A DNA stretch of 35,744 nt, from NCBI GenBank assembly GCA_007118345.1, contig SKRR01000068.1, positions 1 to 35,744 on the forward strand. The letters run 5' to 3'. Positions 3,912 through 29,184 of the stretch are shown piece by piece. Numbering within the stretch: the stretch's first letter is position 1; every line of letters begins with the position of its first letter. The stretch is from Microthrixaceae bacterium. Its GTDB lineage: Bacteria; Actinomycetota; Acidimicrobiia; Acidimicrobiales; Microtrichaceae. The notes beneath the pieces are model-generated. The model was not told the DNA's origin. It did not search any database and was given only the letters and a program-made list of their open reading frames with translations. Made by a program: the position numbers and the translations under genes.

Positions 3912-3918
3912 GGCGAGG

Positions 3919-3924
3919 AGCCTA
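3919..3924 (-). promoter_or_regulatory. -10 box of pspA (leaderless type)
   Basis: TAGGCT on the minus strand, 7 bases before the ATG at 3911. It lies in the 47-base gap after murJ and supports separate expression of pspA. Confidence 0.55.
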
Positions 3925-3958
3925 CGCCACCGGCCTGTCGGTCGGTCCCGCCCCGGCC

Positions 3959-5602: not shown

Positions 5603-5615
5603 GTGCGGTCCTGCC

Positions 5616-5747
5616 TCATGTGGCGTTCAGCGGGTTGCCGGACGTCGGTGTGCCGAGCGCCACCTGCGTGGTGGCGACGATCGCCGACGGCGAGGTCACC
5701 GCCCGGGCGACGCGTGGGGTCAGGAACCTGTCCCGGAAGGAGGCCAT
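5616..5747 (-). CDS. Small 43-residue ORF between acylase and murJ
   Basis: An unrecognised short frame beginning MASFRDRFLTPRVARAVTSP and ending TSGNPLNAT. It starts inside the last codons of the acylase gene (28-base overlap) and stops 13 bases before the murJ GTG. Nearly every third codon position is G or C, as in the neighbouring genes. The N-terminal half is basic and the middle is hydrophobic (SAIVATTQVALG). It may be a genuine small protein or a degraded N-terminus of a longer membrane-associated protein. No clear Shine-Dalgarno site precedes it, so expression would depend on coupling to the acylase gene. Confidence 0.45.
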   Translation of the reverse strand: MASFRDRFLTPRVARAVTSPSAIVATTQVALGTPTSGNPLNAT

Positions 5748-8047
5748 TCGGCACCCATGTTCCCATCATCGGAGGTGAGGATGAGCCGTCGCAGCTCCGG
5801 GTCGGCGTCGATGTCGGCATCGGTGAACCGCAGCGGTCGGAGTTCCTGCTCCGCGTAGGCGACCGTGCCGTCACGATGGTGCGGCGAGCGAGGGTCGCTG
5901 CTCTGGCCGTACGCGAGCAGCCCCGCAGCGTTCGGTCCGTCCGGCGTCAGCTCGAGGACCATGAGGAAGCTGGTGCCGTAGGTGACCTGGTAGCCGCCCT
6001 CGGCGAGGCCGGTCCGTTGCCGACCGATGACCGCGGTCGGCGCCGGCGGCATGGGGTCGAGCGACGCCGACGCCAGGGCACCCACCGGAGCCAACACGTT
6101 CAACAGTCCCTCGGCCTCGCCGCCTCCGTGGACGGGGACGCGCTCGTCGCCCCTGCAGGCCCACTGCACGTCGCGCAGCGGCGCGTCGATGGCGATTCCT
6201 GCGGCATCGAGCGCGGCGAGCGCCTCGGTCGCCGCTGCTGTGATCGGGTCCGGACCGTCGGCCGGGGCGGGCGCGAGCGTGTGGGGTGTCGAGAGGGGTG
6301 CATCGGCGTCGAAGTCGACCGAGAAGAGTGGCCCTGCGGACTTCCACGCCAGCTCGGGCAGGCTGCAGAGCAGCTCGCGCCACAGCACCACTCCGACCGA
6401 ATCCATCCCGGCGGTCAGATCCCACGCGGCGAGCACGTCCGCAGCGTCGGTCAGTTCGCCGTCCCGGAGCCGTTCGACCACCGCGTCGCGCAACAGCTCG
6501 CCGCTGAGGCTCGCGTTGTCGAACACCGAGTCGACGAGATCGTCGAGGGTCACCTGGCCGCGTTCGCGAAGCCCGGCCGCGAGCCGCAGGTTCTGGCGGG
6601 TGCGCAGACTCCTGGGTGTGCGTTCCAGCCCACACAGCACCGGGTAGCCCTCGAGGCGCTGCTCCGGGTGGTTCAGCCAGTGGGAGTCGTTGGCGTTCGC
6701 CACGACGTCACGCACCGCCAGTTCGGGGAGCCGGTCGGGCGGTTCGAGACCCGGTGAACGGGCCCCGTCGAGATCCAGCCAGTCGTCGTCGGGCTCGCTG
6801 CCGTCGAGCATGGCGATGCGGTTCTCGAACGCGAGCGCGGTGATGAGGTCCTCGTCGAGCCGCCGCAGGAAACGTTCGGTCGCTGCGTCGGACAGGGCCG
6901 GGGTGGCCGAGTGGTCGGCGTACCAGGCGTCGCCGTGCGCGTCGGCGGCGAGCGTGTTGACCCACGGCAGCGCCCCGGTGGTGTGGAACACCCGCCGGAA
7001 CTCGGTCAGGTCCCGAGCCCGGCACATGCCGAGGAACTGCTCGAGCACGCCCCAGTTCTCGGCGTTGGCGTCCCGGTAGGAGAACGCCACCTCGGTGCCC
7101 CAGCCGAGCAACGGCAGGTTGAGCATCGGCCCGTGGTGCGTCGACCACATCTCGCGGGTGAGCTCCTCGACGGACCCGTCGTCGCGTCGGACCTGCACGG
7201 TCTCGTCGCTCGCGCTCATCGGGCGGATGTCGTCACCGTGGTGGTAGGAGGTGCCGTCCCCGTCGAGGCGGAGCTGGTACACCGCGAACCGGTGACCGCG
7301 GCTGAAGGTGTGGGCCCAGCCGACGTGGCGGTTGAAGCCCATCTGGATGCCGGGAGCGCCGAGCAGGCACACGCCGTAGACGTCGAGCTCGCCGGGGATG
7401 GTCAGGTGGCACTCCCAGAAGCGGCCCTCGCCGCTCCACGGGAAGTGAGGGTTGGCGAGCACCATGCCGCCCCCGGAGGCGGTCACATCGCCGCCGAGCG
7501 CCCAGCCGTTGCTCGCCGGGGTCGGGCCACCCAGCCCGGTCGGTGGCGGTGGGTGGGGTCCGTCGGGGCCGGGCGGCTGCGCCCAGCCCATCAGCTCCGC
7601 CAGGTTGCGGCCGCTGCCGAGCAGTCCGATGTCGTTGATGTAGGCGTACAGGTCGAGCTCGTCGATGGGGCGGATCCACTCCGCCCCGGCGCACCACGTC
7701 GGCAGCGTCGCACCGTCGTGGGCCTCCGCCACAGCCCGGTTGTAGCCGGCGACGTAGCCGGTCACGAGCGCCCGGATGAACTCGGGTTGGTGGTCACGGA
7801 GCGCCGGTGCGCGGGCCGCCACACCGAGGGACCGGTACCCCAGGTCGGACGCGAGGTTGCTCTCGTGGACGCCGACGCCGTGGTAGCGGGACCGCTCGGA
7901 GCGCACCTTGACGATCTGGTCGGCGATCGTCGGCAGGTGGTCCCTCGCGCACGCCCAGCCCTGGCCGTAGCCGAGCTCTTCCCAGCTGTCGGCGCGGATG
8001 TGGGCGACCCCGTGGGTCGTGTAACGGATGTCGGTGGACCAGGCCAC
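5720..8047 (-). CDS. Penicillin acylase-family (Ntn-hydrolase) amidase, PvdQ/aculeacin acylase-like
   Basis: Member of the peptidase S45 family, which cleaves amide bonds of penicillins, acyl-homoserine lactones or lipopeptides after self-processing. The 775-residue precursor has an alpha-chain region (HGVAHIRADSWEELGYGQGW), a linker rich in Pro and Gly, then the processing site PAS-NGWALGG. The nucleophile would be Ser179. The beta-chain shows NPHFPW, LLGAPGIQMGFNRHVGWAHT and THHGPML. The GTG at 8047 is preceded by GGAGGG 8 bases upstream and an in-frame stop 45 bases upstream, so no signal peptide can be added. This is odd for a family that is normally exported. Gene order suggests transcription after the AAA ATPase gene, or from the box at 8094. 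Confidence 0.88.
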   Translation of the reverse strand: MAWSTDIRYTTHGVAHIRADSWEELGYGQGWACARDHLPTIADQIVKVRSERSRYHGVGVHESNLASDLGYRSLGVAARAPALRDHQPEFIRALVTGYVAGYNRAVAEAHDGATLPTWCAGAEWIRPIDELDLYAYINDIGLLGSGRNLAELMGWAQPPGPDGPHPPPPTGLGGPTPASNGWALGGDVTASGGGMVLANPHFPWSGEGRFWECHLTIPGELDVYGVCLLGAPGIQMGFNRHVGWAHTFSRGHRFAVYQLRLDGDGTSYHHGDDIRPMSASDETVQVRRDDGSVEELTREMWSTHHGPMLNLPLLGWGTEVAFSYRDANAENWGVLEQFLGMCRARDLTEFRRVFHTTGALPWVNTLAADAHGDAWYADHSATPALSDAATERFLRRLDEDLITALAFENRIAMLDGSEPDDDWLDLDGARSPGLEPPDRLPELAVRDVVANANDSHWLNHPEQRLEGYPVLCGLERTPRSLRTRQNLRLAAGLRERGQVTLDDLVDSVFDNASLSGELLRDAVVERLRDGELTDAADVLAAWDLTAGMDSVGVVLWRELLCSLPELAWKSAGPLFSVDFDADAPLSTPHTLAPAPADGPDPITAAATEALAALDAAGIAIDAPLRDVQWACRGDERVPVHGGGEAEGLLNVLAPVGALASASLDPMPPAPTAVIGRQRTGLAEGGYQVTYGTSFLMVLELTPDGPNAAGLLAYGQSSDPRSPHHRDGTVAYAEQELRPLRFTDADIDADPELRRLILTSDDGNMGAEWPPSGTGS

Positions 8048-8093
8048 GGTCGGTTCCCTCCGTCCCGGGCGGCGAGCCCGTGCGTGGCGTCAG

Positions 8094-8099
8094 AAGCTA
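8094..8099 (-). promoter_or_regulatory. Possible -10 box for the acylase gene
   Basis: TAGCTT on the minus strand, 46 bases before the GTG at 8047. It would give an untranslated leader of about 40 bases containing the GGAGGG ribosome site. Confidence 0.3.
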
Positions 8100-8166
8100 C
8101 CGGGACGCCGGGCGACGGTCAGTCCTCGGCCACGACGAGGTGAGGTGCGTTCGGTGCCGCCCGATG

Positions 8167-9549
8167 TCACGTGTCGGCCACGTGGGGGACGTCCTCGGCG
8201 GTGAGGGTGGTGAGGTCCTCCTCGGAGGGGTCCTCCATCCGCACCACACGGGAGGCATGCCGGTTGACCGCCGCTTCGAACAGGTTCCGGCCGACACGCG
8301 CGTTGCCGAACCCCTTGGCGCGCGGCGTCTTCTCGAGCACCGCGCGGAACCGGGCTCGGCCCGCCTCGTCGAGGTGGTAGCGCTGCGCGGTGCCCATCGA
8401 CTCGACGATCGCGAGGATCTCGTCGGTCGAGTAGTCGGGGAACTCGATCACCGTGGGGAAGCGCGACCTCAAGCCCGGGTTGGTCGAGAGGAACTCGTCC
8501 ATCTCGACGGGGTAGCCCGCGACGACCAGCACGACCCGGTCGCGGCGGTCCTCCATCAGCTTGACGATCTGGTCGATCGCCTCACGGCCGAAGTCGCTCT
8601 CCTTGCCCCGCGACAGCGTGTACGCCTCGTCGATGAAGAGCATGCCGCCGTCGGCCCGGTCGAACATCTGGGTCACCAGCGGCGCGGTCTGGCCCACGAA
8701 GCCGGCCACGAGTCCCGACCGGTCGGTCTCGACGAGGTGGCCACGTTCGACCACGCCGAGGGTCCGGTAGATCTGGGCCAGCAGTCGCGCGACGGTGGTC
8801 TTGCCGGTACCCGGATTCCCGGTGAAGACCAGGTGGTGGCTCGTGGACATCGTCGGCAGGTCGCGTTCCGCGCGCAGCCGTTGGACCTGGAGGAAGTCGG
8901 CGACCAGGTTCACGCGCGCCTTCACCTCTTCGAGGCCGATGAGCTCGTCGAGCTCGGCGAGCAGCTCCTCGAGTGGTCGGGGTGGGTCGACGGGCTCGTC
9001 GGGTGGCGTCGGTGCCGGAGCGCTGGCGGCTGCCGTCGCTCCCGGTGTCTCGTCGAGTGGCCGCAAGCCGGCGAGCAGTCGTGTGCGGAGCCGGGCGATC
9101 GCTTCGAGCTCGGCGGTCGAGGACAACACGTCGAGCGACGCCACCACGTGAGCGACATCGAGGGTCCGGTCGTAGTACACCGCGGCGTGTCGGGTGCCGT
9201 GCAGGCGGTCGGCATCGGTGAGCAGGCCCCAGAGCTGGGAGTCCTCGTCGAGCCAGTGGCGACGGTCGGCCACCAGGCGGCTGCCTCGCAGGTCGGCCGG
9301 TGTGGCGTGGAGCAGCTCGGTGTCGCGCAGCCGGTGGCCGAACGCGTCGATCAGTGCGTCGAGCTCGTCGGTGGTGTGGCGTTCGTCGGCGTCGATCATG
9401 GCGGTCGACAGCGAGAACGCCTCATCGACCACGGCGCGGCGCAGGTCCTCGACGTCGACGCCCTCGAGCCCGGTGGTGGCAGCGACCACGGCCTCGGTGA
9501 CCTCGTCGACGAAGCGGGTCACGACGGCGTCGAGGGCTCCGGTACGCAC
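8167..9549 (-). CDS. CbxX/CfqX (SpoVK-like) AAA ATPase
   Basis: A 460-residue AAA+ ATPase of the CbxX/SpoVK/EccA class, likely a remodelling chaperone; its client is unknown. Residues 1-175 form an acidic helical domain containing a TerB-like stretch (AMIDADERHTTDELDALIDAF). A Pro/Ala linker (ASAPAPTPPDEPVDPPRP) leads into the ATPase, with Walker A GNPGTGKTT, pore segment GFVGQTA, Walker B MLFIDEAY, sensor VVLVVAGYP and the arginine finger region PGLRSRFP. The start at GTG 9549 follows a TAACCT box by 7 bases and is divergent from proA. No ESX secretion genes are nearby, so an EccA role is not supported. Confidence 0.9.
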   Translation of the reverse strand: MRTGALDAVVTRFVDEVTEAVVAATTGLEGVDVEDLRRAVVDEAFSLSTAMIDADERHTTDELDALIDAFGHRLRDTELLHATPADLRGSRLVADRRHWLDEDSQLWGLLTDADRLHGTRHAAVYYDRTLDVAHVVASLDVLSSTAELEAIARLRTRLLAGLRPLDETPGATAAASAPAPTPPDEPVDPPRPLEELLAELDELIGLEEVKARVNLVADFLQVQRLRAERDLPTMSTSHHLVFTGNPGTGKTTVARLLAQIYRTLGVVERGHLVETDRSGLVAGFVGQTAPLVTQMFDRADGGMLFIDEAYTLSRGKESDFGREAIDQIVKLMEDRRDRVVLVVAGYPVEMDEFLSTNPGLRSRFPTVIEFPDYSTDEILAIVESMGTAQRYHLDEAGRARFRAVLEKTPRAKGFGNARVGRNLFEAAVNRHASRVVRMEDPSEEDLTTLTAEDVPHVADT

Positions 9550-9556
9550 GGGCGGA

Positions 9557-9562
9557 AGGTTA
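9557..9562 (-). promoter_or_regulatory. -10 box of the AAA ATPase gene (leaderless type)
   Basis: TAACCT on the minus strand, 7 bases before the GTG at 9549. Only 11 bases separate it from the opposing proA box. Confidence 0.5.
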
Positions 9563-9573
9563 CCGGTGGGCGA

Positions 9574-9579
9574 TAGCCT
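9574..9579 (+). promoter_or_regulatory. -10 box of proA (leaderless type)
   Basis: TAGCCT, 7 bases before the GTG at 9587, with no ribosome site between. Confidence 0.55.
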
Positions 9580-9586
9580 TCCCCGC

Positions 9587-10840
9587 GTGACCGACCGACC
9601 CACTCCCGTCAGCGACCAGGCCCGTGCCGTGAAGGCCGCCTCCCGGGCACTCGCCACCGCGTCGACCACATTGAAGAACGACGCGCTCCTCGCCGCCGCG
9701 GACCTGCTCGAGGGGCGAAGCGCCGACGTGCTCGCCGGCAACGCCCTCGACGTGGCCGCCGCTGAGGACGCCGGCATCGCCGCAGGTCTGGTCGACCGCC
9801 TGCGCCTCGACGAGTCCCGCGTCGCGGCGATGGCCGGTGGGCTCCGCCAGGTGGCGACACTGGCCGACCCCGTGGGAGAGGTGCTCGACGGATGGGTGCG
9901 CCCGAACGGTCTGCGCATCTCGCGGGTGCGCGTGCCGCTCGGCGTCGTGGCGATCATCTACGAGAGCCGACCGAACGTGACCTCGGACGCCGCAGCGCTG
10001 TGCCTGAAGTCGGGCAACGCCGCGTTCCTCCGAGGGTCGTCGACGGCGATCCACTCGAACACCGCAGTGGCGGCGGTGCTGCGCGAGGCGGTGTCGAAGA
10101 TCGGGCTCCCTGCCGACTCGGTGGTGCTCGTGGAGGACACGTCGCGTGAGGCGGCGGTCGAGTTCATGCAGCAGCGGGGCCTGGTCGACTGCCTGATCCC
10201 ACGGGGCGGGCCGTCGCTCATCGCGTCGATCCTCGAGAACGCCACGGTGCCGTTCGTGATCGACGGCGACGGCAACTGCCACGTGTACGTGGATGAGCAC
10301 GCCGACCTGGACATGGCCGAGTCGATCGTGGCCAACGCGAAGCTGCAGCGGCCATCGGTGTGCAACGCCGCCGAGTCGCTGGTGCTGCACGCCGACATCG
10401 CCGACGACTTCCTCGACCGCATCGATCTCGTGTTGGCGGGTGTGGAGCTGGTGGGCGACGAACGCTCCCGTTCACTGCTCGACCGGATCGAGCCGGCGTC
10501 GCCCGAGGACTTTGCGTCGGAGTTCCTCGACCTCAAGCTGTCGGTCAAGGTGGTCGATTCGCTCGACGAGGCGATCGAGCACGTCAACGCCAACAGCTCG
10601 GGTCACAGCGAGGCGATCGTCACCGACGACCTGCGCTCGGCCGACCGGTTCCTCGACGAGGTCGACGCGGCGGCGGTGCTGGTGAACGCGTCGACCCGGT
10701 TCGTCGACGGTGAGGAGTTCGGGTTCGGTGCCGAGATCGGCATCTCGACCCAGAAGCTGCACGCCCGGGGGCCGATGGGTCTGGCGCAGCTGACCACGGC
10801 GAAGTACCAGGTCCGTGGCGACGGACAGACACGCGGTTGA
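9587..10840 (+). CDS. proA: Glutamate-5-semialdehyde dehydrogenase (gamma-glutamyl phosphate reductase)
   Basis: Second step of proline synthesis: NADPH-dependent reduction of glutamyl-5-phosphate to glutamate semialdehyde. The 417-residue protein shows ProA signatures in order: VPLGVVAIIYESRPNVTSDA, LKSGNAAFLRGSS, VDCLIPRGGPSL, the catalytic cysteine in RPSVCNAAESL (Cys259), NSSGHSEAIVTDD and NASTRFVDGEEFGFGAEIGIS. The frame is open well upstream, but GTG 9587 is chosen because TAGCCT stands 7 bases before it and the homology begins shortly after. It is separated from proB by the murJ-AAA block on the other strand. Confidence 0.96.
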   Translation: MTDRPTPVSDQARAVKAASRALATASTTLKNDALLAAADLLEGRSADVLAGNALDVAAAEDAGIAAGLVDRLRLDESRVAAMAGGLRQVATLADPVGEVLDGWVRPNGLRISRVRVPLGVVAIIYESRPNVTSDAAALCLKSGNAAFLRGSSTAIHSNTAVAAVLREAVSKIGLPADSVVLVEDTSREAAVEFMQQRGLVDCLIPRGGPSLIASILENATVPFVIDGDGNCHVYVDEHADLDMAESIVANAKLQRPSVCNAAESLVLHADIADDFLDRIDLVLAGVELVGDERSRSLLDRIEPASPEDFASEFLDLKLSVKVVDSLDEAIEHVNANSSGHSEAIVTDDLRSADRFLDEVDAAAVLVNASTRFVDGEEFGFGAEIGISTQKLHARGPMGLAQLTTAKYQVRGDGQTRG

Positions 10841-10924: not shown

Positions 10925-12190
10925 TCATCCGGTGTCGAGCGGGAGTGGGTCGGTGGGGGTTCGGCCGTGTTGTTGGGCCCAGAAGCGGGTGATGGGGGTT
11001 CGTATCCAGAACTGTCCGGTCCCGGTCGCGTGGAGTTGCCATCCGGGCCGGTGGATCACCTGATGGTGGTGCCGGCAGAGGTGTGCCATGAGGTCGGTGT
11101 CGGTGGTGCCGTCGTCGTCCCAGGGGGTGGCGTGGTGGAGGTCACACCAGGCGATGGGTGTCGAGCAGCCGGGCCAGATGCAGGTGCCGTCGCGGAGGGC
11201 GGCGGCTCGACGTTGGTGGGGGGTGGCGAAGCGTGAGGCTCGTCCGAGATCGACGGTTCGCCCGAGGGAGTCGACGACGATCGGGAACAGGCGTGAGTCG
11301 CACAGGAGGTGTCGGGTGGTGCCGTCCTGCAGTGGCACGGCGCCGGGCGTGTGGCCGTTCGTGGGTTCTTCGGCGTTGATGACGACGGTGACCTCGGGCA
11401 CGGGTGCTTTCGAGGCATCGAGGTCGGTGGCTCGGGCTCGGCGGGCCATTTCGACCAGGGCGAGTGCTTCGAGCGTGGCGCGTGGGGGTGTCCGGAGGTC
11501 GCCGGGCGCGACGTGCTCGTCGTTGCGGTGCTGGCGGAAGAGCTCGTCGGCGATCGTGTCGATGGTCTGGAACACGATCTCGCCGTCGAGGCCGTGGAGC
11601 TGTGCTCGGATGACGTGGGTGTCGTCGAGTGTGGCGGCCTTGCTGAGGCGGTTGCGTGTGGGGTCGTCGTCGGGTTCGTGGCCGCCGTCGGCGTCGAGGG
11701 CGTCGGCGAGTGCTCTCACGTCGCGTTGCCACACCTCGAAGCGGGTGCCGGACGCGCCGTCGGCCAAGAGTGGTGCTGCGGCAGCGAAGCCGACTTGGTT
11801 GCGGGGGTTGGTGGCGTCGGCGAGGACGCGGGCGTGGTCGAAGCCGATGCGGCCGTCGGCGAACATGGCCGCGACCTCGGGCAGTGCGCGGCGGAGTTTC
11901 ACCCCGACGCGCACCCGGGAGCGGGCGACCGCCGACGGTAGTTCCGTTTCGTGGGCGAGCCAGGCGTGGGTGGAGAGCCCGAGGACCGCGTCGGTGGCGT
12001 CACGTGCGTCCAACTCGGCGAGGGCGGCGCACTCGGCGGCGTCCAGCAGACGGCGGGCGTGTTCGAGTCCGGCGACGGTCGCCATGAGGTCGTCGTCTCC
12101 CACCGTCGCGGGCGACGACGCTGCGAGCGCGCGGGCCGCGGCGGTGAGGTCGCGCACCGCGCTGTCGGACTCTCCGGACAGGTCGAACAT
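10925..12190 (-). CDS. DUF222 / HNH endonuclease domain protein (13E12 repeat family-like)
   Basis: A 421-residue protein of the actinobacterial DUF222-HNH family, related to the 13E12 repeat proteins of mycobacteria. The N-terminal two thirds are the helical DUF222 region (LDAAECAALAELDARDATDAVLG). The C-terminal HNH nuclease motif is intact: CIWPGCSTP, CDLHHATPW, HLCRHHHQVIHRPGW. These proteins often occur in many copies per genome; their role is unsettled and may be that of a selfish nuclease. The ATG at 12190 is chosen because TAGGGT lies 7 bases upstream; an upstream in-frame ATG (MSHPFGRVKH) would place the start before that box. It sits convergent to proA and divergent from the serpin gene. 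Confidence 0.88.
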   Translation of the reverse strand: MFDLSGESDSAVRDLTAAARALAASSPATVGDDDLMATVAGLEHARRLLDAAECAALAELDARDATDAVLGLSTHAWLAHETELPSAVARSRVRVGVKLRRALPEVAAMFADGRIGFDHARVLADATNPRNQVGFAAAAPLLADGASGTRFEVWQRDVRALADALDADGGHEPDDDPTRNRLSKAATLDDTHVIRAQLHGLDGEIVFQTIDTIADELFRQHRNDEHVAPGDLRTPPRATLEALALVEMARRARATDLDASKAPVPEVTVVINAEEPTNGHTPGAVPLQDGTTRHLLCDSRLFPIVVDSLGRTVDLGRASRFATPHQRRAAALRDGTCIWPGCSTPIAWCDLHHATPWDDDGTTDTDLMAHLCRHHHQVIHRPGWQLHATGTGQFWIRTPITRFWAQQHGRTPTDPLPLDTG

Positions 12191-12409: not shown

Positions 12410-13660
12410 ATGCGTCCACACACCTTGATTGCGATCGGTCTCATCCTGGCGATGCTCGCTACGGCGTGCGGCAGTGAAGGCGAGCAGGCCGACCCACCCG
12501 GTGACGCGGGTCGGATCGACGTCGAGCTCGTCGGCGAGCTGAGCGACTCGGACGCGGCCGAGGTCGCGCGATCGGTGAACTCGTTCGGGTTCGACCTGCA
12601 GGCGGCGCTCATGGCCGAGGAGGGCGGCAACGTGGTGACGTCACCGTTGTCGGTGGCGACGCTGCTCGCCATGGTCGCCGTGGGTGCCGGCGGCGAGACG
12701 GCTGAGCAGATGGCCGAGGTGCTCCACCTCGACACCGTGCGCGACGACCGGTTCGCCGCGTTGTTGCGCACGGTGTCGGACACCGATGACGTCGTCGTGT
12801 CGGTGGCCAACGCGTTGTGGGCGAACGAGGGGACACCGTTCGAGCAGGACTATCTGTCCTTCGCGCGGGACGTGTTCGGCGCAACTGCCGAGCAGGCGCC
12901 GCTGGGTGAGCAGGCGACGGCGGATGAGATCGACGAGTGGGTCACCGATCGCACCGAGGGGCTGATCGAGGAGATCGCGGCCGATCTCGGGCTGCCGAGC
13001 CCGAACGCCGTGCTCGTGTTGCTCAACGCCGTCTACTTCCTCGGTGAATGGAGTGTGCAGTTCGACCCCGACCTGACCGCCGAGCAGCCCTTCACGCTCG
13101 CCGACGGCACCCGGGTGGACGTGCCCACCATGTACCGTCCGTCGGACCCCGAGGGGCCGGTCCAGGTCGCCCAGCGTGACGGCTACGAGGTGTTGCGGCT
13201 GCCGTACGGCGACGACGAGCGGTTCGCCATGGACGTGTTCCTCCCGGCACCCGAGCACGACACCGCCGCGATGTTGGACCGGATGGATGTGGACGAGCGG
13301 CTTGCGGCGCTCGGAGCGCTCGAGGGAGGAGCACTGGACGTGCGGCTGCCGAGCTTCGAGCTGGAGTGGGACGCGAACCTGAACGCCGCTCTCGCCGCAC
13401 TCGGCATGGAGCTGCCGTTCTCCGGTGCAGCCGACTTCTCAGCGATGTCGCCGTCGGACCCGTTCCTCAGCGCCATCGTGCACAAGAGCTACATCCGGGT
13501 CGACGAGGAGGGCACCGAGGCCGCTGCGGTCACTGGAGGAATGATGGCGACGTCGGTGCCGCCGTCCTTCACCGTCGACCGGCCGTTCCTCTTCACCGTG
13601 AGCGACACCCGGACCGACACGGTCCTGTTCCTAGGCACGGTCGAGGACCCGCGAGGGTGA
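12410..13660 (+). CDS. Serpin family lipoprotein (protease inhibitor)
   Basis: A 416-residue serpin, a suicide inhibitor of serine or cysteine proteases, with a lipoprotein signal. The N-terminus has a hydrophobic h-region and lipobox LATAC with the lipidated Cys at 20, so it should sit outside the membrane. The serpin core shows NVVTSPLSVATLLAMVAVGA, LNAVYFLGEW and the C-terminal DRPFLFTV. The hinge of the reactive loop reads EEGTEAAAVTGG (from residue 366), with the small residues expected of an inhibitory serpin. The scissile bond probably lies within MMATSVPP, which would favour elastase-, chymotrypsin- or subtilisin-like targets (inference). GGAGG stands 5 bases before the ATG. Its stop abuts the stop of convergent greA. 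Confidence 0.93.
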   Translation: MRPHTLIAIGLILAMLATACGSEGEQADPPGDAGRIDVELVGELSDSDAAEVARSVNSFGFDLQAALMAEEGGNVVTSPLSVATLLAMVAVGAGGETAEQMAEVLHLDTVRDDRFAALLRTVSDTDDVVVSVANALWANEGTPFEQDYLSFARDVFGATAEQAPLGEQATADEIDEWVTDRTEGLIEEIAADLGLPSPNAVLVLLNAVYFLGEWSVQFDPDLTAEQPFTLADGTRVDVPTMYRPSDPEGPVQVAQRDGYEVLRLPYGDDERFAMDVFLPAPEHDTAAMLDRMDVDERLAALGALEGGALDVRLPSFELEWDANLNAALAALGMELPFSGAADFSAMSPSDPFLSAIVHKSYIRVDEEGTEAAAVTGGMMATSVPPSFTVDRPFLFTVSDTRTDTVLFLGTVEDPRG

Positions 13661-21637: not shown

Positions 21638-21712
21638 TCGGGGGTGGTGTAATCGGCAACACATCTGGTTCTGGTCCAGACATTGGGGGTTCGAGTCCTC
21701 CCCCCCGAGCCA
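21638..21712 (+). tRNA. tRNA-Gln (anticodon CTG)
   Basis: All arms fold. The acceptor pairs TCGGGGG with CCCCCGA, the anticodon stem TCTGG with CCAGA, and the T stem GGGGG with CCTCC (one G-T). The anticodon loop TTCTGGT gives CTG, read as Gln for CAG codons. The discriminator is G and the CCA end is encoded at 21710-21712. Confidence 0.95.
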
Positions 21713-21752: not shown

Positions 21753-21825
21753 GCCCCCATCGTCTAGCGGCCTAGGACACCACCCTCTCAAGGTGGCGGC
21801 ACGGGTTCGAATCCCGTTGGGGGTG
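21753..21825 (+). tRNA. tRNA-Glu (anticodon CTC)
   Basis: The acceptor pairs GCCCCCA with TGGGGGT (last pair G-T), the anticodon stem CCACC with GGTGG, and the T stem ACGGG with CCCGT. The loop CTCTCAA gives anticodon CTC for GAG codons. The CCA end is not encoded (GCTCC follows). The 3' part of this gene is repeated at 28726-28744, which suggests it served as an integration site. Confidence 0.95.
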
Positions 21826-21832
21826 CTCCGAG
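21814..21832 (+). repeat. Left copy of the 19-bp tRNA-Glu 3'-end repeat (candidate att site)
   Basis: CCGTTGGGGGTGCTCCGAG, covering the T-arm/acceptor end of tRNA-Glu plus 7 bases. It is identical to 28726-28744, 6.9 kb away. Confidence 0.7.
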
Positions 21833-21863
21833 ACGAAAGCCCCGGATTTCCGGGGCTTTCGTC
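21832..21863 (+). terminator. Strong hairpin, bidirectional terminator after tRNA-Glu
   Basis: Perfect 14-bp inverted repeat GACGAAAGCCCCGG / CCGGGGCTTTCGTC with loop ATTT. It lies 6 bases after tRNA-Glu and 10 bases beyond the stop of the oppositely directed monooxygenase gene, so it can end both transcripts. The T-run is short. Confidence 0.75.
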
Positions 21864-21873
21864 GTTGCCGGGC

Positions 21874-23277
21874 TCAGCGGGTCGCCTGTGTGGATTGCAG
21901 GGTGACCGCACTTTCGTCTCCCGACGAGGTGACAACTCCCGGGCCTCGCCGAGAGGCCCACATCACCCGCAGCAGGAACCCAGGTGCGAGCAGTGACGCC
22001 GGCCGCCGGACCATGGCGGCAACCGCGTTGAACCGCAGCACGGCCGCATCGTCGTGCTGTCCGGCGATGATCACCCGTCGACCGTAGCGATTGAACAGAT
22101 CGGTGCCGAAGGGCTTGTCCCCGGTCGTGCCGTCGAAGGCGAAGTCGCCTCCCACTGCGATGGACCACGGCGTCGCCACGATACGGCCGGCGGCGGCGAA
22201 GTACCGGCGCCCCAAGCGGTGGTCGACCGCTCCGGCCCGGTCGAGCTGCGCTCCGAGGGCCTGGGCCTGCTGGGCAGCCGAGCTCATGCCCTGGCCGTAG
22301 ATCGGGTCGAAGCTGCAGATGGCGTCCCCCAACAGGATCCAGCCCGCCGGGAAGCGACGTAGCTTCTCGACCCGGCGGCGCTGGCTAGCCGGGAAGCGGT
22401 GGGTGACCGCCGGGCCCATGGCCTCGGAGGTCTCCATGACCTCGGCGATCGCGTGGGACTCGAAGGAGCGGGCCATCGCCAGCATCCCGTCGTCGTCAGT
22501 GGGTGGGACGACCCCGTTGACACCGATCAGCACCACGATCCAGCGCTCGCCCTCAATGGGTAGGCACATGATCTGCTGTTTGGCCTCGGGTCCGCCCATG
22601 ACCGCTGCCGCCGTCCAGCCCCGGGTCCGGCGGTCGTCGCGTCGGTAGACCCGGCTGACGTATCGGGTGTCGATGTGGACCTGGTCGACGACAGGCGACT
22701 CGTAGCCGAGCTCCTCGACCCACCGGACGCTGCGGGCATGGCGACCGCTCGCGTCGACGACGAGGTCGGCGGCGAGGACCGTGTCGTCGTCCAGGCGCAC
22801 GCCGGTCACCCGGCCGCCGCCGGACGCCTCGGTCAGGCCGCCGACCGCGGTGGCGCCCCGGATCGTGACGTTCGGGAGCGCTGCGACCCGCTGGCGAACG
22901 AGGTGCTCGAGGTAGGGGCGGGACATGGCCGGGCTGACGAGCTCCGACGTCGGGCGGCGGGCCAGGCCACCTTGGTCCCACCAGTGGACGTCGGCGGCGA
23001 TGTCGAAGAGGATGGCGCCGCCATCGACCAGGTCGTCGGTGAGGCCGGGGAACCATCCCTCCAGGATCTCGTGACCGGCCTTCATCAACAGGTGGGGATG
23101 CTGGCTCTGGGGGACCAGGCGCCGGTGCTCTGGCCCGTCGGGCAGGCGATCCCGGTCGAGGACCACCACGTGCTCGAACCGATCGGCCAGCACCCTGGCC
23201 GCGCACAGCCCGGCCATGCTGGCGCCGACCACCACCCCGGTCCCCCCGATCCATCGCGCCGTCCGCTGTGCTCTCAT
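21874..23277 (-). CDS. FAD-dependent monooxygenase (aromatic hydroxylase/epoxidase superfamily)
   Basis: Flavoprotein oxygenase of the p-hydroxybenzoate hydroxylase fold, 467 residues. It shows the FAD dinucleotide site GTGVVVGASMAGLCAAR, the ribose-binding VVLDRDRLPD, the segment PQSQHPHLLMKAGHEILEG, DASGR in the middle and the second FAD motif WILLGDAICSFDPIYGQGM. The HPHLL and FPGL-type segments resemble polyether epoxidases of the LasC/MonCI kind, but the substrate is unknown. The ATG at 23277 has GAGGAGG 9 bases upstream; frame continuation upstream is not coding. It follows the methyltransferase gene on the same strand after 95 bases and lies within the tRNA-Glu-bounded segment, where it may act in a tailoring pathway. 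Confidence 0.9.
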   Translation of the reverse strand: MRAQRTARWIGGTGVVVGASMAGLCAARVLADRFEHVVVLDRDRLPDGPEHRRLVPQSQHPHLLMKAGHEILEGWFPGLTDDLVDGGAILFDIAADVHWWDQGGLARRPTSELVSPAMSRPYLEHLVRQRVAALPNVTIRGATAVGGLTEASGGGRVTGVRLDDDTVLAADLVVDASGRHARSVRWVEELGYESPVVDQVHIDTRYVSRVYRRDDRRTRGWTAAAVMGGPEAKQQIMCLPIEGERWIVVLIGVNGVVPPTDDDGMLAMARSFESHAIAEVMETSEAMGPAVTHRFPASQRRRVEKLRRFPAGWILLGDAICSFDPIYGQGMSSAAQQAQALGAQLDRAGAVDHRLGRRYFAAAGRIVATPWSIAVGGDFAFDGTTGDKPFGTDLFNRYGRRVIIAGQHDDAAVLRFNAVAAMVRRPASLLAPGFLLRVMWASRRGPGVVTSSGDESAVTLQSTQATR

Positions 23278-23372
23278 GGGCTCACGCCTCCTCGATCCAG
23301 GTGTCGAGCCGTCCGTGGACCACGGCAGGTCACCGACCACCGCTCGACAGGTGATGCGCCGCGTCCGGACGC

Positions 23373-24437
23373 TCAGACCCTCGCTTCGAGGACCAGGTTG
23401 AGCGGGGTCTCGGCTGCACGACGGAAGTGGTGGTACCCGGCCTCCTCGAAGACCTGCCGGAGTCGGGCCTCGCCGGCCTGCGCGCCCAGGCCGAGCCCGA
23501 CCTCCTGTGACAACGAGTTGGGGGTGCACGCCACGGTCGAGCCGTTGTACAGGAGCGCCGCGACCGGATTCTGAGCGAGATTGGTCGGGCGTCCGTCCAT
23601 CGCGTACGGCTCGACGAGCAGGACCGTGCCACCGGGCGTGAGCTGGGTCCGGGCGTGCCGGGCAGCACCGACCGGGTCGCCGAGGTCGTGCAGGCAGTCG
23701 AAGAAGCAGATCAGGTCGAACGGTCCTTCGTAGCTCGTGGCATCGGCCACCTCGAAGGTGGTGCGGTCCGCAACCCCGGCCTCCTCCGCTCGCGCGCGGG
23801 CGGTCTCGATCGAGGGTGGGTGGAAGTCGAAACCGTGGACATGGCTACGAGGATGAGCGTCGGCGATGATCACCGCCGATGCTCCGTGTCCGCACCCGAC
23901 GTCGGCCACGCGTGCGCCCTCGACGAGCTGGTCGTGCACGCCGTCGAGAGCGGGGATCCACTCGGTGGTGAGCATGGCCTGGTAGCCGGTCCGGAAGAAC
24001 CACTCGATCCCTGAGAACAGGCACGGATGGTGATCGCCCCAGCTCAGGGCGCCGTCGCCGCGAAAGGCAGTCGCGACCTCGTCGAGGTCGAGGTAGAAGG
24101 CACGCAACGCGTTCATGCCCCGGGCGACGAACACGGGGGACTCGTCGTCGGCCAGGGCCATCGCCCCCTCGGGGCTGAGTTCGTACGTGTCAGCAGTCGG
24201 GTCGTACTCGATGAGCCCGCCGGCTGTCTGGCCGTCCAGCCATTCCCGGACCAGTCTCGGGTGGCACGCAGTCGTATGTGCCACCTCGTCAGCGCTCATC
24301 GGCGTCGATCCCGACATGGCCCGGTAGAGGCCGAGTTCCTCGCCCAGCCAGATCCCGAAGCACAGCGCTGATCCGGTCATGTGGCTCATCACCCGCCCCA
24401 TGTACGCCTCGAGGTGGGTCTCGTCGATCGTGGTCAT
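23373..24437 (-). CDS. SAM-dependent methyltransferase with N-terminal winged helix (Rv2258c-like)
   Basis: A 354-residue class I methyltransferase. Residues 1-85 form a helical/winged-helix dimerisation region (GIWLGEELGLYRAM, VREWLDGQTAGGLIEY). The SAM site reads VADVGCGHGASAVIIAD, followed by the acidic residue in HGFDFHPPS, then VADATSYEGPFDLICFFDCLHDLGDP and LTPGGTVLLVEPYA. This layout matches the Rv2258c group found near natural-product genes; the acceptor molecule is unknown. GGAGG stands 7 bases before the ATG. The start overlaps, in an ATGA junction, the stop of a decayed alpha/beta hydrolase frame, a trace of an older three-gene operon. The monooxygenase follows 95 bases downstream. 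Confidence 0.92.
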   Translation of the reverse strand: MTTIDETHLEAYMGRVMSHMTGSALCFGIWLGEELGLYRAMSGSTPMSADEVAHTTACHPRLVREWLDGQTAGGLIEYDPTADTYELSPEGAMALADDESPVFVARGMNALRAFYLDLDEVATAFRGDGALSWGDHHPCLFSGIEWFFRTGYQAMLTTEWIPALDGVHDQLVEGARVADVGCGHGASAVIIADAHPRSHVHGFDFHPPSIETARARAEEAGVADRTTFEVADATSYEGPFDLICFFDCLHDLGDPVGAARHARTQLTPGGTVLLVEPYAMDGRPTNLAQNPVAALLYNGSTVACTPNSLSQEVGLGLGAQAGEARLRQVFEEAGYHHFRRAAETPLNLVLEARV

Positions 24438-24730
24438 GTCATTTCCTCCATGTGTCGTGTTCGAGTGGATGAGAGGTTCGGATCATCGGATGCGCTCTTC
24501 GGTTGAACGCAGTGCTGCGGTGCAGGCTTCGCAGTGAAGAAGCGGATGAGTTCGTCGGCCACGGTGGCCGGCTCGGACATCGGAGCGAAGTGCCCTGCGC
24601 CGTCGATCTCGCGCACCTGCGCCTCGCGCGTCGTCCGAGGACCACCATGGACACGGTGGGGTTGCGCGCCGGCTGCAGCGCGGCTGCGTGCCCCCACGAC
24701 GGCTGTGGGGCACCCGTCGCGTCGCGCCTG
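24434..24730 (-). pseudogene. Remnant of an alpha/beta hydrolase (C-terminal part)
   Basis: The minus frame ending at 24434 contains VREIDGAGHFAPMSEP and TVADELIRFF, the typical end of an alpha/beta hydrolase with the catalytic His in GHFAPM. Upstream the homology appears to jump frames (PTVSMVVLG in another frame, CPTAVVGARSR in the first), and there is no nucleophile elbow, lid or N-terminal half before the divergent regulator promoter. So only about the last quarter survives. The frame ends in an ATGA overlap with the methyltransferase start. A functional short product is unlikely. Confidence 0.6.
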
Positions 24731-24750
24731 AAACCGGTCGCCCCCCGCCC

Positions 24751-24756
24751 TACGGT
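24751..24756 (+). promoter_or_regulatory. -10 box of the BTAD regulator (leaderless type)
   Basis: TACGGT, 6 bases before the GTG at 24763. The same hexamer occurs at the mannosidase gene. Confidence 0.5.
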
Positions 24757-24762
24757 GGTGGT

Positions 24763-27700
24763 GTGCTCGTACGGCTCTTGGGTCCGGTCGAGCTGGTTGG
24801 CGAGGCCGGTCCACTCCAACTCGGAGGCGAGAAGGAACGCACCGCGCTCGCCGCGATTGCGGTCGCTCGGCCCCACCCGGTCGACCGCGACCGGATGATC
24901 GCTGCGCTGTGGGATGAAGAACCGCCGCGGACCGCGGTCAAATCGATGCAGGCCTACGTGTCCCGGCTTCGTTCGGTGGTCGGCGACGCCATCACCTCCA
25001 GCGGGACGGGCTACACCTTGCACGCCGAGGTGGACCTCGAGACGGTCGAACAGTTGGTGGCTGAGGGACACCGGCGGCTCGCCGATGGCGACGCCGCGCT
25101 CGCGGCGCAGCAGTTCGGCGATGCGCTGCAGCGCTGGACCGGGCCCTCGTTGTCCGGCGTCGCCGCGACCGCTGCGATGGAGCTCGAGCGTGCCCGGCTC
25201 GACGAACTCGCCCGCGCGACCGCCGAGAATCGAATCGCAGCGCTGCTCGATGCCGGACACGGCCCAGCGCTGGTGGGTGAGCTGGAGGTGATGGTTGGCG
25301 AGGAGCCGCTGCGTGAGCTTCGGTGGGCGCAGCTGCTGAGGGCGCTCCACCGCTCCGGCCGGCAATCGGAGGCCCTGCGCGCCTACCAGCGCCTCCGCGC
25401 CACCCTCGCCGAGGAGCTGGGAATCGATCCGTCCCCCGAGTTGCAGGAACTCGAACGTCGCATCCTCACCCACGAAGCGCCCCCCGGTCCGACGACAGGT
25501 GACCCATCACGCCCGCCACCGATGATCCCCGCCGTCGACCTCCCCTTCCCGGAACGCCTCGGCCCACCGCCGACCGCGTTCGCAGGTCGTACCACCGAGC
25601 TCGCCCAGCTCCAGGCGGCATGGGCCCGGCGGGCGTCCCACGGACGACGAGGCGCAGTCGTGACCGGCGAGGCGGGAATCGGCAAGACCGCTTTGATGAG
25701 TCGCTTCGCCCGGGTGGTGCACCGTGCCGGTGCGGTCGTGCTCGCAGGCGAGCCCAGCGAGGACATCGGGCTCGCCTACCGACCATGGGTCGAAGTTCTC
25801 GATCCGCTGGTGCAGCACCTCCCCGTGGAGGTCCTGGTCGAACACGTCGCGAGGTGCGGCGGCGTGCTGTCGCGACTTGCCCCGGCACTCCGACGGCGGG
25901 TCGAGCTACCGGCGACGAACGACATCGTCGCCGACACAGAGCGGTACCTGCTGCTCGACGCGGTCGTGGACCTGCTCGGACGCACCCCCGCTCCGCTGCT
26001 CGTGGTGATCGACGACCTGCACTGGTCCGACCGGGCGAGCCTGCAGCTGCTGCGTCACGTGATGGCCAGCCCGTCGCTGCCGGACGTGCTGGTGGTCGGC
26101 GCCTACCGGCCGACCGACGTCGATGGCGGAGGTCCGCTCACTGACGTGATCGCCGAGCTGCGGAGGGTCGACGGCGTGGCGTTCGTCTCGCTCGCAGGTC
26201 TCGACGACCAGGAGTTGCTGGAGATGCTGACGGCCTGCGGCCACGTGCCCGTCGAGAGCGGCGTCGCCCTTCGTGACGCGCTCGCGGAGGAGGCCGGTGG
26301 GAACCCGTTCTTCACCCTGGAGATCCTCCGACATCTGGTCGAGACCGGAGCCGTCGACCGCGGCGAGGTCGACGGGTTCGGTTCGGACGGGCCCGTTGCG
26401 CTCGAACTGCCGGTGAGTGTCCGTCAGGTGATCGGTCAACGCGTCGCACGGCTGGGCGGGACCACCCACCGGGTGCTGCGCGAGGCGGCCGTCATCGGGC
26501 GCCAGTTCGACCTCAGCACGCTGGCCGCCGTCGCGGAGATCGCCGTCGACGACCTACTCGAGCTGATGGACGCTGCGGTCGCCGCCTCCGTGGTGGTCAA
26601 TCCCGACGGCGAGCACTTCCACTTCGCGCACGCGTTGATAGAGCACGCGCTCTACGCCGAGTTGCTTCCTGCTCGTCGTGTGCGCACGCACCACCGTGTC
26701 GCGAGGTTGTTGGAGCGGCGCTGGGGCGCAGACCCAGGGGACCATGTCGCGGAGGTGGCGCACCACTGGGCCGAAGCGGTCACCATCGCCGGCCCGGAGC
26801 GGGCGATCCTGTGGGCTCGGCGTTCAGGGGACCACGCGATGGCCCGGCTGGCTCCGGATGAGGCGGTCCGCTGGTACTCACGTGCGCTCGACCTGATCGA
26901 CTCCGCTCGTGACGACGAGCTCCGCCGAACGCTGCATGTCGAGCTGGGCAGAGCGGAGCGCAACGCGGGTGATCCCGTGCATCGACGTCGGCTGCTCGAC
27001 GCCGCGCACCTCGCTCGCAGCGTCGGCGACGTCGAAGTGCTCGTCCAGGCGGCACTCGCGAACAACGGCGGGGTCTACAGCGTGATCGGCGACGTGGACA
27101 CGGAGCGGGTGGCGGTGCTGGAGCAGGCGTTGAAGTGCGCGGACGACGGTGACCACTGCTCGCGCGCTCGACTCCTCGCGACGCTGAGCGCCGAGCTGAC
27201 GTTCAGCGGCTCGGCGCAGCTCGAACGACTCGCGACGGAGGCCGTCGCCACCGCCCGACGATGTGGCGACCCCGACACGTTGTGCGACGTGCTCAACCTG
27301 ACCGAGATCACCCGCAGGGTGCCGTGGCTGCTCGACGAACGCGACCGGTGCACGCGTGAGGCGATGGATCTGAGCGTCGAGGTCGCGGACCCGATCCGCC
27401 GGTTCAGCGCCGCACTGAAGCGACACCACGTGCTGGTGGTGCGTGCCGAGCGCACCGAGGCCCGTCGGTACCTCCAGGAGGCGATGACCATCGCCGACCG
27501 ACTCGCACTGCCGAACCTCCACTGGATCGTCCGTACTGCCAGCGTGCTCGACGCCGTGCTCGACGGCGACCTGGAGCTGGCTGAGGCCCGCGCGGCTGAT
27601 GCGCTCGAGGTCGGTACCGTCACCGGCCGGGCCGACGCCTTCACGAGCTACTCCGTCCAGCTGATGACCATCCGCCATCTCCAGGGGCGTCTGGGAGAGC

Positions 27701-28299
27701 TCGTGCCGGACATCACGCGGCTGGTCGCGGACAAACCGACCGTTGCGACGTTCAGGGTGGTACTCGCGAGTGCTCACGCCAGCGCGGGTGACCTCGATCT
27801 GGCCCGTCCGATCTTCGACGACCTGATCTCCGACCTCGATCGGGTGAACGCCGACCCGATCTGGTCGACCCACATGGGACTGCTCGCCGACACGGCCATC
27901 CTGCTCGGCGACCATCACGCTGCTGCGGACATCTACGAGCGTCTCTCCCCGTACGCTGATCAGATCAGCACCGTGGTCGGTGTCGTGTGCGACGGTGCGA
28001 TCTCTCACCGACTGGGGTGCCTCGCCGACCTGCTCGGTCGGCCCGGTGAGGCGGTCGACCACCTCACCGACGCGCTCGGTCGCCATCGGCGTCTCGAGTC
28101 ACCGCTTCACGTGGCGGGAACCGAACGCGAACTCGCTCGTGTGGTGGCGGCGAGCGCGGTGGGAGCGAGAGATCGGCAGGGCTCCGGCCACCGCGGGAGG
28201 CCGGGGCCCAGCCTCGCCCCGTCACCTGCTCAACAGCCGACGACCGCCGGGGTTGATACATCGCCACACGGGATCGGTGGAGCGAGTCCTTCGCGCTGA
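24763..28299 (+). CDS. Large BTAD/AAA transcriptional regulator (AfsR/SARP-like)
   Basis: A 1178-residue multidomain activator. Residues 1-87 form an OmpR-type winged helix (LVRLLGPVELVGEAGPLQLG start, KSMQAYVSRLRSVVGD, GYTLHAEVD). Residues about 92-240 are the BTAD helical domain (RWAQLLRALHRSGRQSEALR, ending EELGIDPSPELQELERRIL). The AAA/STAND ATPase has Walker A GEAGIGKT at 302-309 and Walker B VVIDDLHWSD around 417. The remainder is TPR-like helical repeats. The last 40 residues are low complexity and probably read past the ancestral end. Such proteins activate secondary-metabolism genes. It is divergent from the methyltransferase-monooxygenase operon, its likely target. Confidence 0.92.
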   Translation: MLVRLLGPVELVGEAGPLQLGGEKERTALAAIAVARPHPVDRDRMIAALWDEEPPRTAVKSMQAYVSRLRSVVGDAITSSGTGYTLHAEVDLETVEQLVAEGHRRLADGDAALAAQQFGDALQRWTGPSLSGVAATAAMELERARLDELARATAENRIAALLDAGHGPALVGELEVMVGEEPLRELRWAQLLRALHRSGRQSEALRAYQRLRATLAEELGIDPSPELQELERRILTHEAPPGPTTGDPSRPPPMIPAVDLPFPERLGPPPTAFAGRTTELAQLQAAWARRASHGRRGAVVTGEAGIGKTALMSRFARVVHRAGAVVLAGEPSEDIGLAYRPWVEVLDPLVQHLPVEVLVEHVARCGGVLSRLAPALRRRVELPATNDIVADTERYLLLDAVVDLLGRTPAPLLVVIDDLHWSDRASLQLLRHVMASPSLPDVLVVGAYRPTDVDGGGPLTDVIAELRRVDGVAFVSLAGLDDQELLEMLTACGHVPVESGVALRDALAEEAGGNPFFTLEILRHLVETGAVDRGEVDGFGSDGPVALELPVSVRQVIGQRVARLGGTTHRVLREAAVIGRQFDLSTLAAVAEIAVDDLLELMDAAVAASVVVNPDGEHFHFAHALIEHALYAELLPARRVRTHHRVARLLERRWGADPGDHVAEVAHHWAEAVTIAGPERAILWARRSGDHAMARLAPDEAVRWYSRALDLIDSARDDELRRTLHVELGRAERNAGDPVHRRRLLDAAHLARSVGDVEVLVQAALANNGGVYSVIGDVDTERVAVLEQALKCADDGDHCSRARLLATLSAELTFSGSAQLERLATEAVATARRCGDPDTLCDVLNLTEITRRVPWLLDERDRCTREAMDLSVEVADPIRRFSAALKRHHVLVVRAERTEARRYLQEAMTIADRLALPNLHWIVRTASVLDAVLDGDLELAEARAADALEVGTVTGRADAFTSYSVQLMTIRHLQGRLGELVPDITRLVADKPTVATFRVVLASAHASAGDLDLARPIFDDLISDLDRVNADPIWSTHMGLLADTAILLGDHHAAADIYERLSPYADQISTVVGVVCDGAISHRLGCLADLLGRPGEAVDHLTDALGRHRRLESPLHVAGTERELARVVAASAVGARDRQGSGHRGRPGPSLAPSPAQQPTTAGVDTSPHGIGGASPSR

Positions 28300-28330
28300 C
28301 GCCATCCGCTCCGCTACGAGTTCGGAGTTC

Positions 28331-28610
28331 GGAGACGAGCTCGAGGTCGAGTCGGATCGCTGTGGCGGCGATCCACCGATCCGCTTCGTGCAGCTTCTGC
28401 CCGAGTGGATGCCCCGCCGTCTCGCAGGAGGTCCTCAGATCAGCGCAGATGGACATCAGCGCAGCCAGCCGGCCTTCGACGCGCCGTCGCGGAGTTCTCT
28501 GACCGTCGCGAAGGAGATCACGATCGGCTGGCCGGCGATCAGCGGCGTAGTACTCGGCTGCTGATCGCCATCGTGTCGACCACCACGGCGGGTAGCGCCG
28601 GGTCGGTCAC
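28331..28610 (-). pseudogene. Decayed VapC (PIN-domain) toxin gene
   Basis: Three pieces of a PIN-domain ribonuclease lie in order on the minus strand but in different frames. The first, from the GTG at 28610, contains AVVVDTMAIS with the first acidic residue. The second (28459-28542) reads LIAGQPIVISFATVREL and ends at a stop after KAGWLR. The third (from 28456) reads CADLRTSCETAGHPLGQKLH and then EADRWIAATAIRLDLELVS, with the later acidic residue. Stretches of roughly 10 and 25 residues are missing between pieces, and the last part of the domain is absent. No vapB antitoxin is seen upstream. The 28300-28785 interval holds only this remnant and the right att-like repeat. Confidence 0.7.
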
Positions 28611-28725
28611 CGCGAGGCGATGGACATGGGGCCGATGGTACTGGACAGGATGGTCAGAACCGAGTGGCTCGGCCCCGCTCGCGGTACGCAGCGGTGGGGT
28701 GGCTGGCGATCCGCTTTTCGGTAAT

Positions 28726-28744
28726 CCGTTGGGGGTGCTCCGAG
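28726..28744 (+). repeat. Right copy of the tRNA-Glu 3'-end repeat (candidate att site)
   Basis: CCGTTGGGGGTGCTCCGAG, identical to 21814-21832. The match extends upstream as AAT-C with one base missing relative to the tRNA. The rest of a tRNA is absent, so it is a displaced 3' fragment, 41 bases from the cdd stop codon. Confidence 0.7.
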
Positions 28745-28785
28745 CGACAGCGGAGCGCACGATTGTCGAATCGCGCAACGACAGT

Positions 28786-29184
28786 TCAGCGACGGACGAA
28801 TGGCCCGTTCGGGAGGAGTTCGCCGACGGTCGATCGGCTGATGGGGGCGTCGTCGGCGACCGAAGTGGCGTAGATCGGCATCGAAGAACCGCCGAGCTCG
28901 AGCGCGACTTGGAGGCAGGCTCCGCACGGCCAGGTGAGGTCCTCGCCGGTGCGTGGCGCGACGAGGGCCAGGGCAAGCGGTCGGGCACCGAGTGCAACCG
29001 TGGAGAAGAGTGCGACCCGCTCGGCGCACATGGCCAACCCGAGTGAGACGTTCTCGACGATCACGCCGGGGACGACACCGCCGGAATCGGTGTGCACCGC
29101 CGCTCCGGCTCGGAACCGGGAGTAGGGAACGTGGGCGTTGGATCGGCACGCTCGGGCCCCGGCCACCAGTTCGGTTGGCGTCAT
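28786..29184 (-). CDS. cdd: Cytidine deaminase
   Basis: Zinc enzyme converting cytidine and deoxycytidine to uridine and deoxyuridine in pyrimidine salvage. The 132 residues match the small tetrameric type: substrate contacts in VENVSLGL (Glu44-Asn45), the zinc/catalytic motif CAER with Cys53 and Glu55, and PCGAC with Cys87 and Cys90. The family often has ENASYG where this protein has ENVSLG. The ATG at 29184 follows a TATGTT box by 6 bases. It is the first ordinary gene to the right of the att-like repeat. Confidence 0.95.
   Translation of the reverse strand: MTPTELVAGARACRSNAHVPYSRFRAGAAVHTDSGGVVPGVIVENVSLGLAMCAERVALFSTVALGARPLALALVAPRTGEDLTWPCGACLQVALELGGSSMPIYATSVADDAPISRSTVGELLPNGPFVRR

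What the first reader, a model, noticed from the sequence alone, without database searches (positions are those of the whole stretch)
21814..28744. Cryptic genomic island bounded by a 19-bp tRNA-Glu repeat
CCGTTGGGGGTGCTCCGAG occurs at the 3' end of tRNA-Glu (21814-21832) and again at 28726-28744. The right copy lacks the rest of a tRNA. Between them lie accessory genes and two pseudogenes; outside lie ordinary genes. Tyrosine-recombinase islands characteristically leave this pattern, an intact tRNA on one side and a displaced 3' fragment on the other. No integrase is seen inside, so the element seems decayed or dependent on a helper.
Basis: partly seen in the sequence, partly recalled or inferred. 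Interest (0 to 1): 0.8.

Follow-up and report, generated by a model that had tools for sequence, protein, structure and literature searches.

The report
Decayed island at a tRNA-Glu hotspot
A bacterial tRNA gene that has repeatedly served as a docking site for mobile DNA carries, in this genome, a 7-kb decayed insertion without an integrase of its own: a textbook kind of genomic island, newly located in a little-studied actinobacterial family but not surprising.

Summary
The 19-bp repeat is real: exact at 21814-21832 (3' end of tRNA-Glu CTC plus flank) and 28726-28744, the only two exact copies in the draft genome. Comparison supports integration. In same-family relatives (Microthrixaceae, Acidimicrobiales) gltX-DUF218-tRNA-Gln-tRNA-Glu is conserved up to the tRNA, and downstream DNA differs in nearly every genus. 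Nine relatives carry displaced 30-49-bp tRNA-Glu fragments, some in tandem arrays; five have a tyrosine integrase beside the tRNA.

The window copy differs: 19 bp, starting in the T-stem rather than the anticodon loop, no terminator behind it, no integrase inside. Its regulator/hydrolase/methyltransferase cluster lacks orthologs in the family but is 72-84% identical to one in another family whose gltX is only 49% identical; the hydrolase is truncated and one gene is lost. Beside the right repeat is a decayed PIN toxin gene whose closest intact relative found lies just downstream of tRNA-Glu in another genus.

Best reading: an integrase-less, decayed, CIME-like remnant at a tRNA-Glu hotspot. 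No empty site was found, composition is near native, and single-element origin is inferred.

The parts
21753..21826 (+). tRNA-Glu(CTC), intact; proposed integration target
   Evidence: ARAGORN; conserved gltX-DUF218-tRNA-Gln-tRNA-Glu order in relatives
21814..21832 (+). left copy of the 19-bp repeat (attL-like), tRNA positions 62-80
21832..21863 (+). terminator-like hairpin directly behind tRNA-Glu
   Evidence: inverted repeat found by BLAST; folds at -32 kcal/mol with flank; similar hairpins follow tRNA-Glu and most displaced copies in relatives
21874..23235 (-). FAD-dependent monooxygenase-like gene
   Evidence: weak FAD_binding_3 match; no ortholog in 32 family genomes, best elsewhere 50% identity
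23373..24437 (-). SAM methyltransferase with Rv2258c-like winged HTH
   Evidence: Pfam; best in family 36%, but 63-67% in three other families and 84% over 149 aa in G380
24490..24620 (-). alpha/beta-hydrolase remnant (C-terminal piece only)
   Evidence: 74% identity over 35 aa to the C-terminus of an intact hydrolase in G380; DNA match 24515-24611
24763..28299 (+). SARP/BTAD-AAA regulator, open frame; last about 50 codons lie beyond the homologous block
   Evidence: Pfam BTAD and AAA_16; 72% identity over 1136 aa to G380, DNA match ends at 28139
28329..28610 (-). decayed PIN-domain (VapC-like) toxin gene, pieces in two frames
   Evidence: 70% and 65% identity to an intact PIN gene beside tRNA-Glu in G008; own Pfam match only E=0.065
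28726..28744 (+). right copy of the 19-bp repeat (attR-like), no tRNA and no terminator

Best explanation
The segment 21833-28725 is a decayed, integrase-less remnant left by site-specific integration at the 3' end of tRNA-Glu(CTC). Proposed history: (1) a tyrosine-recombinase element carrying a copy of the tRNA 3' end integrated in the T-stem/acceptor part of the gene; its copy restored the tRNA, and the chromosomal 3' end was displaced to 28726-28744. (2) Foreign cargo (a SARP regulator with a divergent hydrolase/methyltransferase operon, a monooxygenase gene, a PIN toxin gene) came with it or accumulated there. (3) The integrase, most of the hydrolase, the dehydrogenase gene of the operon and a working toxin were lost. 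It now resembles a cis-mobilizable element: att-like ends without its own machinery. Shown: the repeat, its uniqueness, the hotspot in relatives, the distant kinship of the cargo, the pseudogenes. Inferred: the integration event here, its subsite, a single-element origin, and any residual mobility.
For: Unique exact repeat of the tRNA-Glu 3' end, same orientation, 3' fragment downstream. Same tRNA gene is a hotspot in relatives, with displaced fragments in nine genomes and integrases beside the tRNA in five. Cargo lacks orthologs in the family but the cluster is 72-84% identical in G380, another family with gltX 49% identical. PIN remnant next to the right repeat is closest to a PIN gene about 260 bp downstream of tRNA-Glu in G008; related PIN genes lie at the hotspot in G017 and G024.
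Against: No integrase or excisionase inside. No empty-site allele found. Repeat is shorter than in relatives, at a different subsite, without terminator. Composition close to native. Homology to the G380 cluster ends at 28139, so the interior may have more than one origin. The G380 contig could be a binning error, which would change the donor but not the absence from this family.
Confidence: 0.68

Rival explanations
1. The right repeat is the eroded end of the same anticodon-loop type of element seen in relatives. That element was mostly deleted, leaving the PIN remnant and 19 bp, and the SARP/methyltransferase cluster and monooxygenase arrived independently by ordinary recombination between the tRNA and the relic.
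For: PIN remnant beside the repeat is of the hotspot type; the G380-like block ends at 28139, left of it; relatives use anticodon-loop sites only as far as seen.
Against: No trace of the upstream tRNA half beside the right copy (p=0.52), although 19 bp next to it are perfectly kept including 7 bases of flank; erosion stopping sharply in the T-stem is unlikely.
Confidence: 0.18
2. The 19 bp at 28726 were copied from the tRNA end by a process other than integrase action (illegitimate duplication or gene conversion), and the variable genes beside tRNA-Glu are ordinary gene turnover.
For: Only 19 bp, no terminator behind it, no integrase, near-native composition.
Against: Position, strand and end point are those integration produces, at a gene that is a proven target in the same family.
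Confidence: 0.1
3. Chance match or assembly artefact.
For: Draft genome of 368 contigs; the window is one whole contig.
Against: 0 matches in 100 shuffles even with 3 mismatches; no word of 15 or more recurs in 168 kb of own sequence. A 19-bp repeat is shorter than usual assembly word lengths, so it should not cause a misjoin (inference).
Confidence: 0.04

Closest known systems
Islander-type tRNA genomic islands (PMC4383910)
   Same: Intact tRNA gene and a displaced 3' fragment, same strand, 3' side, 7 kb apart; repeat start fits the T-stem/junction subsite.
   Different: No integrase gene inside, which the Islander filter requires.
Cis-mobilizable elements, CIMEs (PMC5704250)
   Same: Att-like ends retained, no integration or transfer genes, at a site where related elements accrete.
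   Different: Function of the ends and origin from an ICE or IME are untested; no adjacent intact element in this genome.
Dehalococcoides ssrA islands (PMC3146451)
   Same: About 20-bp repeats of an RNA gene 3' end, T-loop region, tandem units at one locus, 15 islands without an integration module.
   Different: Target there is tmRNA and the recombinase is CcrB-like (serine type); here the target is tRNA-Glu and relatives have tyrosine integrases.
tRNA-Glu islands of the same family (G001, G016, G024, G004, G028)
   Same: Same tRNA gene, same side; PIN-type cargo also at this hotspot in G008, G017, G024.
   Different: They use anticodon-loop att fragments of about 30-49 bp and keep an integrase; the window has a 19-bp T-stem repeat and none.

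Membership tests
Islander-type tRNA genomic island | tRNA gene plus cognate 3' fragment, same strand, fragment downstream and reaching the tRNA end, 2-200 kb apart | tested here: met
   6.9 kb
Islander-type tRNA genomic island | fragment does not overlap a conserved protein domain | tested here: met
   right copy lies between the PIN remnant and cdd (28786-29184), outside called genes
Islander-type tRNA genomic island | integrase gene inside the island | tested here: not met
   no Phage_integrase match on contig C48; the four genome matches lie on other contigs
cis-mobilizable element (CIME) | lacks integration and transfer genes | tested here: met
   gene calls and Pfam of the segment
cis-mobilizable element (CIME) | functional attL and attR | not testable with these tools
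   only the 19-bp sequence identity is shown
cis-mobilizable element (CIME) | derived by deletion from an ICE or IME | not tested
   no ancestor element identified
inserted element in general | an empty-site allele with one repeat copy exists | tested here: inconclusive
   no same-genus genome held; in the family genomes fetched and 80 GTDB loci none has the window's right-flank genes beside tRNA-Glu
inserted element in general | cargo of foreign kinship | tested here: met
inserted element in general | foreign composition | tested here: inconclusive
   89th percentile for 7 kb; 97th at 26451-28750

The most novel reading that the evidence does not exclude
tRNA-Glu(CTC) of Microthrixaceae hosts a long-lived set of mostly integrase-less, toxin-carrying small units moved in trans by a few integrases of more than one subsite class, and the window unit is a member that captured a metabolic gene cluster.
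Probability: 0.15. Interest if true: 0.5.

Novelty: new member of a known kind. Interest (0 to 1): 0.3.

Why it matters
It documents a tRNA-Glu(CTC) integration hotspot in a poorly studied actinobacterial family, with tandem small islands rich in toxin-antitoxin genes, and shows a gene cluster shared between families ending as a decaying remnant at such a site. One keyword search found no paper devoted to such islands in this group, but the mechanism is well known.

Tried and rejected
Empty-site search: the family genomes and 80 GTDB loci found through DUF218 gave no same-genus allele. Compositional test: tetranucleotides and codon bias do not separate the segment; a first run failed because one fetched contig was all N, and was repeated without it. 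Extension of the right repeat into an eroded longer copy: rejected (p=0.52). Missing terminator behind the right copy as proof against insertion: dropped, because elements in relatives carry a terminator along with the tRNA end. Alpha-mannosidase as a conserved right boundary: widespread in the family but located elsewhere in relatives. Resident integrases as helper: two look like Xer recombinases; one on contig C154 is 30% identical to the G028 tRNA-Glu integrase but is cut by the contig end. The two pseudogenes gave no Pfam match above cut-off alone and were identified only by comparison with relatives.

Full report
Observation. The 19-mer is exact at 21814-21832 and 28726-28744, and these are its only exact copies in the 3.35-Mb draft genome. 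The window is the entire contig C48. ARAGORN finds tRNA-Gln(CTG) at 21638-21712 and tRNA-Glu(CTC) at 21753-21826, and nothing at the right copy. In tRNA-Glu numbering the repeat runs from position 62 (T-stem 3' strand) through the acceptor and discriminator to 7 bases beyond. Flanking sequence does not extend the match on either side.

The locus in relatives. Downstream of tRNA-Glu almost nothing is shared between genera; G014 and G015 share a few genes, and G001 and G016, of one genus, share an island. In G001, G016, G024, G004, G007, G029, G017, G028 and G032 displaced tRNA-Glu fragments lie downstream of the tRNA or, where the contig lacks it, in the same kind of array. Many start at position 33 (first base of the anticodon loop) and end around 72-77. 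Several are preceded by GGTCG and most are followed by a terminator-like hairpin. G024 has five displaced copies over about 20 kb. Integrases lie beside the tRNA in G001, G016, G024, G004 and, of a different type, G028; Pfam confirms Phage_integrase for G001 and G028, and HTH_17 for the small gene beside the G001 integrase. Other cargo includes PIN, HEPN and AbiEi/AbiEii-type genes. This is a site-specific integration hotspot with accretion.

The window segment. Genes: FAD monooxygenase-like (21874-23235, -), methyltransferase (23373-24437, -), hydrolase remnant, SARP regulator (24763-28299, +), PIN remnant, then the repeat. The monooxygenase has no ortholog in 32 family relatives; the methyltransferase reaches only 36% in the family members sampled; SARP homologs in the family reach 40% over part of the protein. 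In G380, another family of the order, one contig carries SARP, an intact alpha/beta hydrolase, an acyl-CoA dehydrogenase-like gene and the methyltransferase in the same relative order. Identities are 72% (SARP, 1136 aa) and 84% (methyltransferase, 149 aa up to the contig end), while gltX is 49% identical. The window version has lost the dehydrogenase gene and most of the hydrolase. DNA similarity stops at 28139, and the regulator reads about 50 codons past the point where its G380 homolog ends. The cluster was therefore very likely exchanged horizontally and has since decayed here.

The right edge. Between 28329 and about 28610 on the minus strand are pieces of a PIN-domain gene in two frames, 70% and 65% identical to an intact gene that lies about 260 bp downstream of tRNA-Glu in G008, in the same orientation relative to the tRNA. 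PIN genes of the same group lie at the hotspot in G017 and G024. This ties the neighbourhood of the right repeat to the hotspot independently of the repeat itself.

What differs from the relatives' islands. The repeat is 19 bp rather than about 30-49, starts in the T-stem rather than the anticodon loop, and has no terminator behind it. Islander (PMC4383910) distinguishes anticodon-loop from T-loop/junction subsites; the window repeat fits the latter, which suggests a different integrase from those now seen in relatives (inference). Dehalococcoides ssrA islands (PMC3146451) are a close analogue: 20-bp repeats, T-loop region, tandem units, 15 of them without an integration module. The definition of a CIME (PMC5704250), an element that lost integration and transfer genes but kept attL and attR, describes the proposed state; function of the ends is untested.

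What is not shown. No empty site was found; no same-genus genome was available. Composition does not mark the segment: the 7-kb value is at the 89th percentile of own-genome windows, with only the right end (26451-28750) at the 97th. The right flank (cdd, polyketide-cyclase-like, arginine-methyltransferase-like, alpha-mannosidase) is not beside tRNA-Glu in any relative examined, and alpha-mannosidase, widespread in the family, lies elsewhere. A single-element origin of the 6.9 kb is therefore uncertain.

Verdict. Observation confirmed. Island reading partly supported: the hotspot and the foreign kinship of the cargo are well supported, the unity of the element is inferred. Ordinary in kind.

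Noticed in passing
L031, L032 (G024 contig C12, about 11-31 kb): Tandem array at tRNA-Glu: five displaced tRNA fragments over about 20 kb, with two integrase genes and several small toxin-antitoxin-like genes.
   Followed up: partly
L035 (G007) and L036 (G029): Displaced tRNA-Glu fragments only about 1.3 kb downstream; the G007 unit holds little more than a HEPN-domain gene and no integrase.
   Followed up: partly
L038 (G028), oriented 3722-10234: The island at tRNA-Glu carries one very large open frame of about 2170 aa beside an unrelated integrase.
   Followed up: no
window 3451-5750 and 10925-12190: Two stretches outside the finding are compositional outliers: tetranucleotides at the 99th percentile and a gene with the most biased codon usage of its size class.
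   Followed up: no
L207 (G363), 9421-10606: A homolog (52%) of the window methyltransferase lies directly upstream of a tRNA-Glu(CTC) in another family; may be coincidence.
   Followed up: no
window 12410-13660: Full-length serpin gene (Pfam E=8e-91).
   Followed up: no
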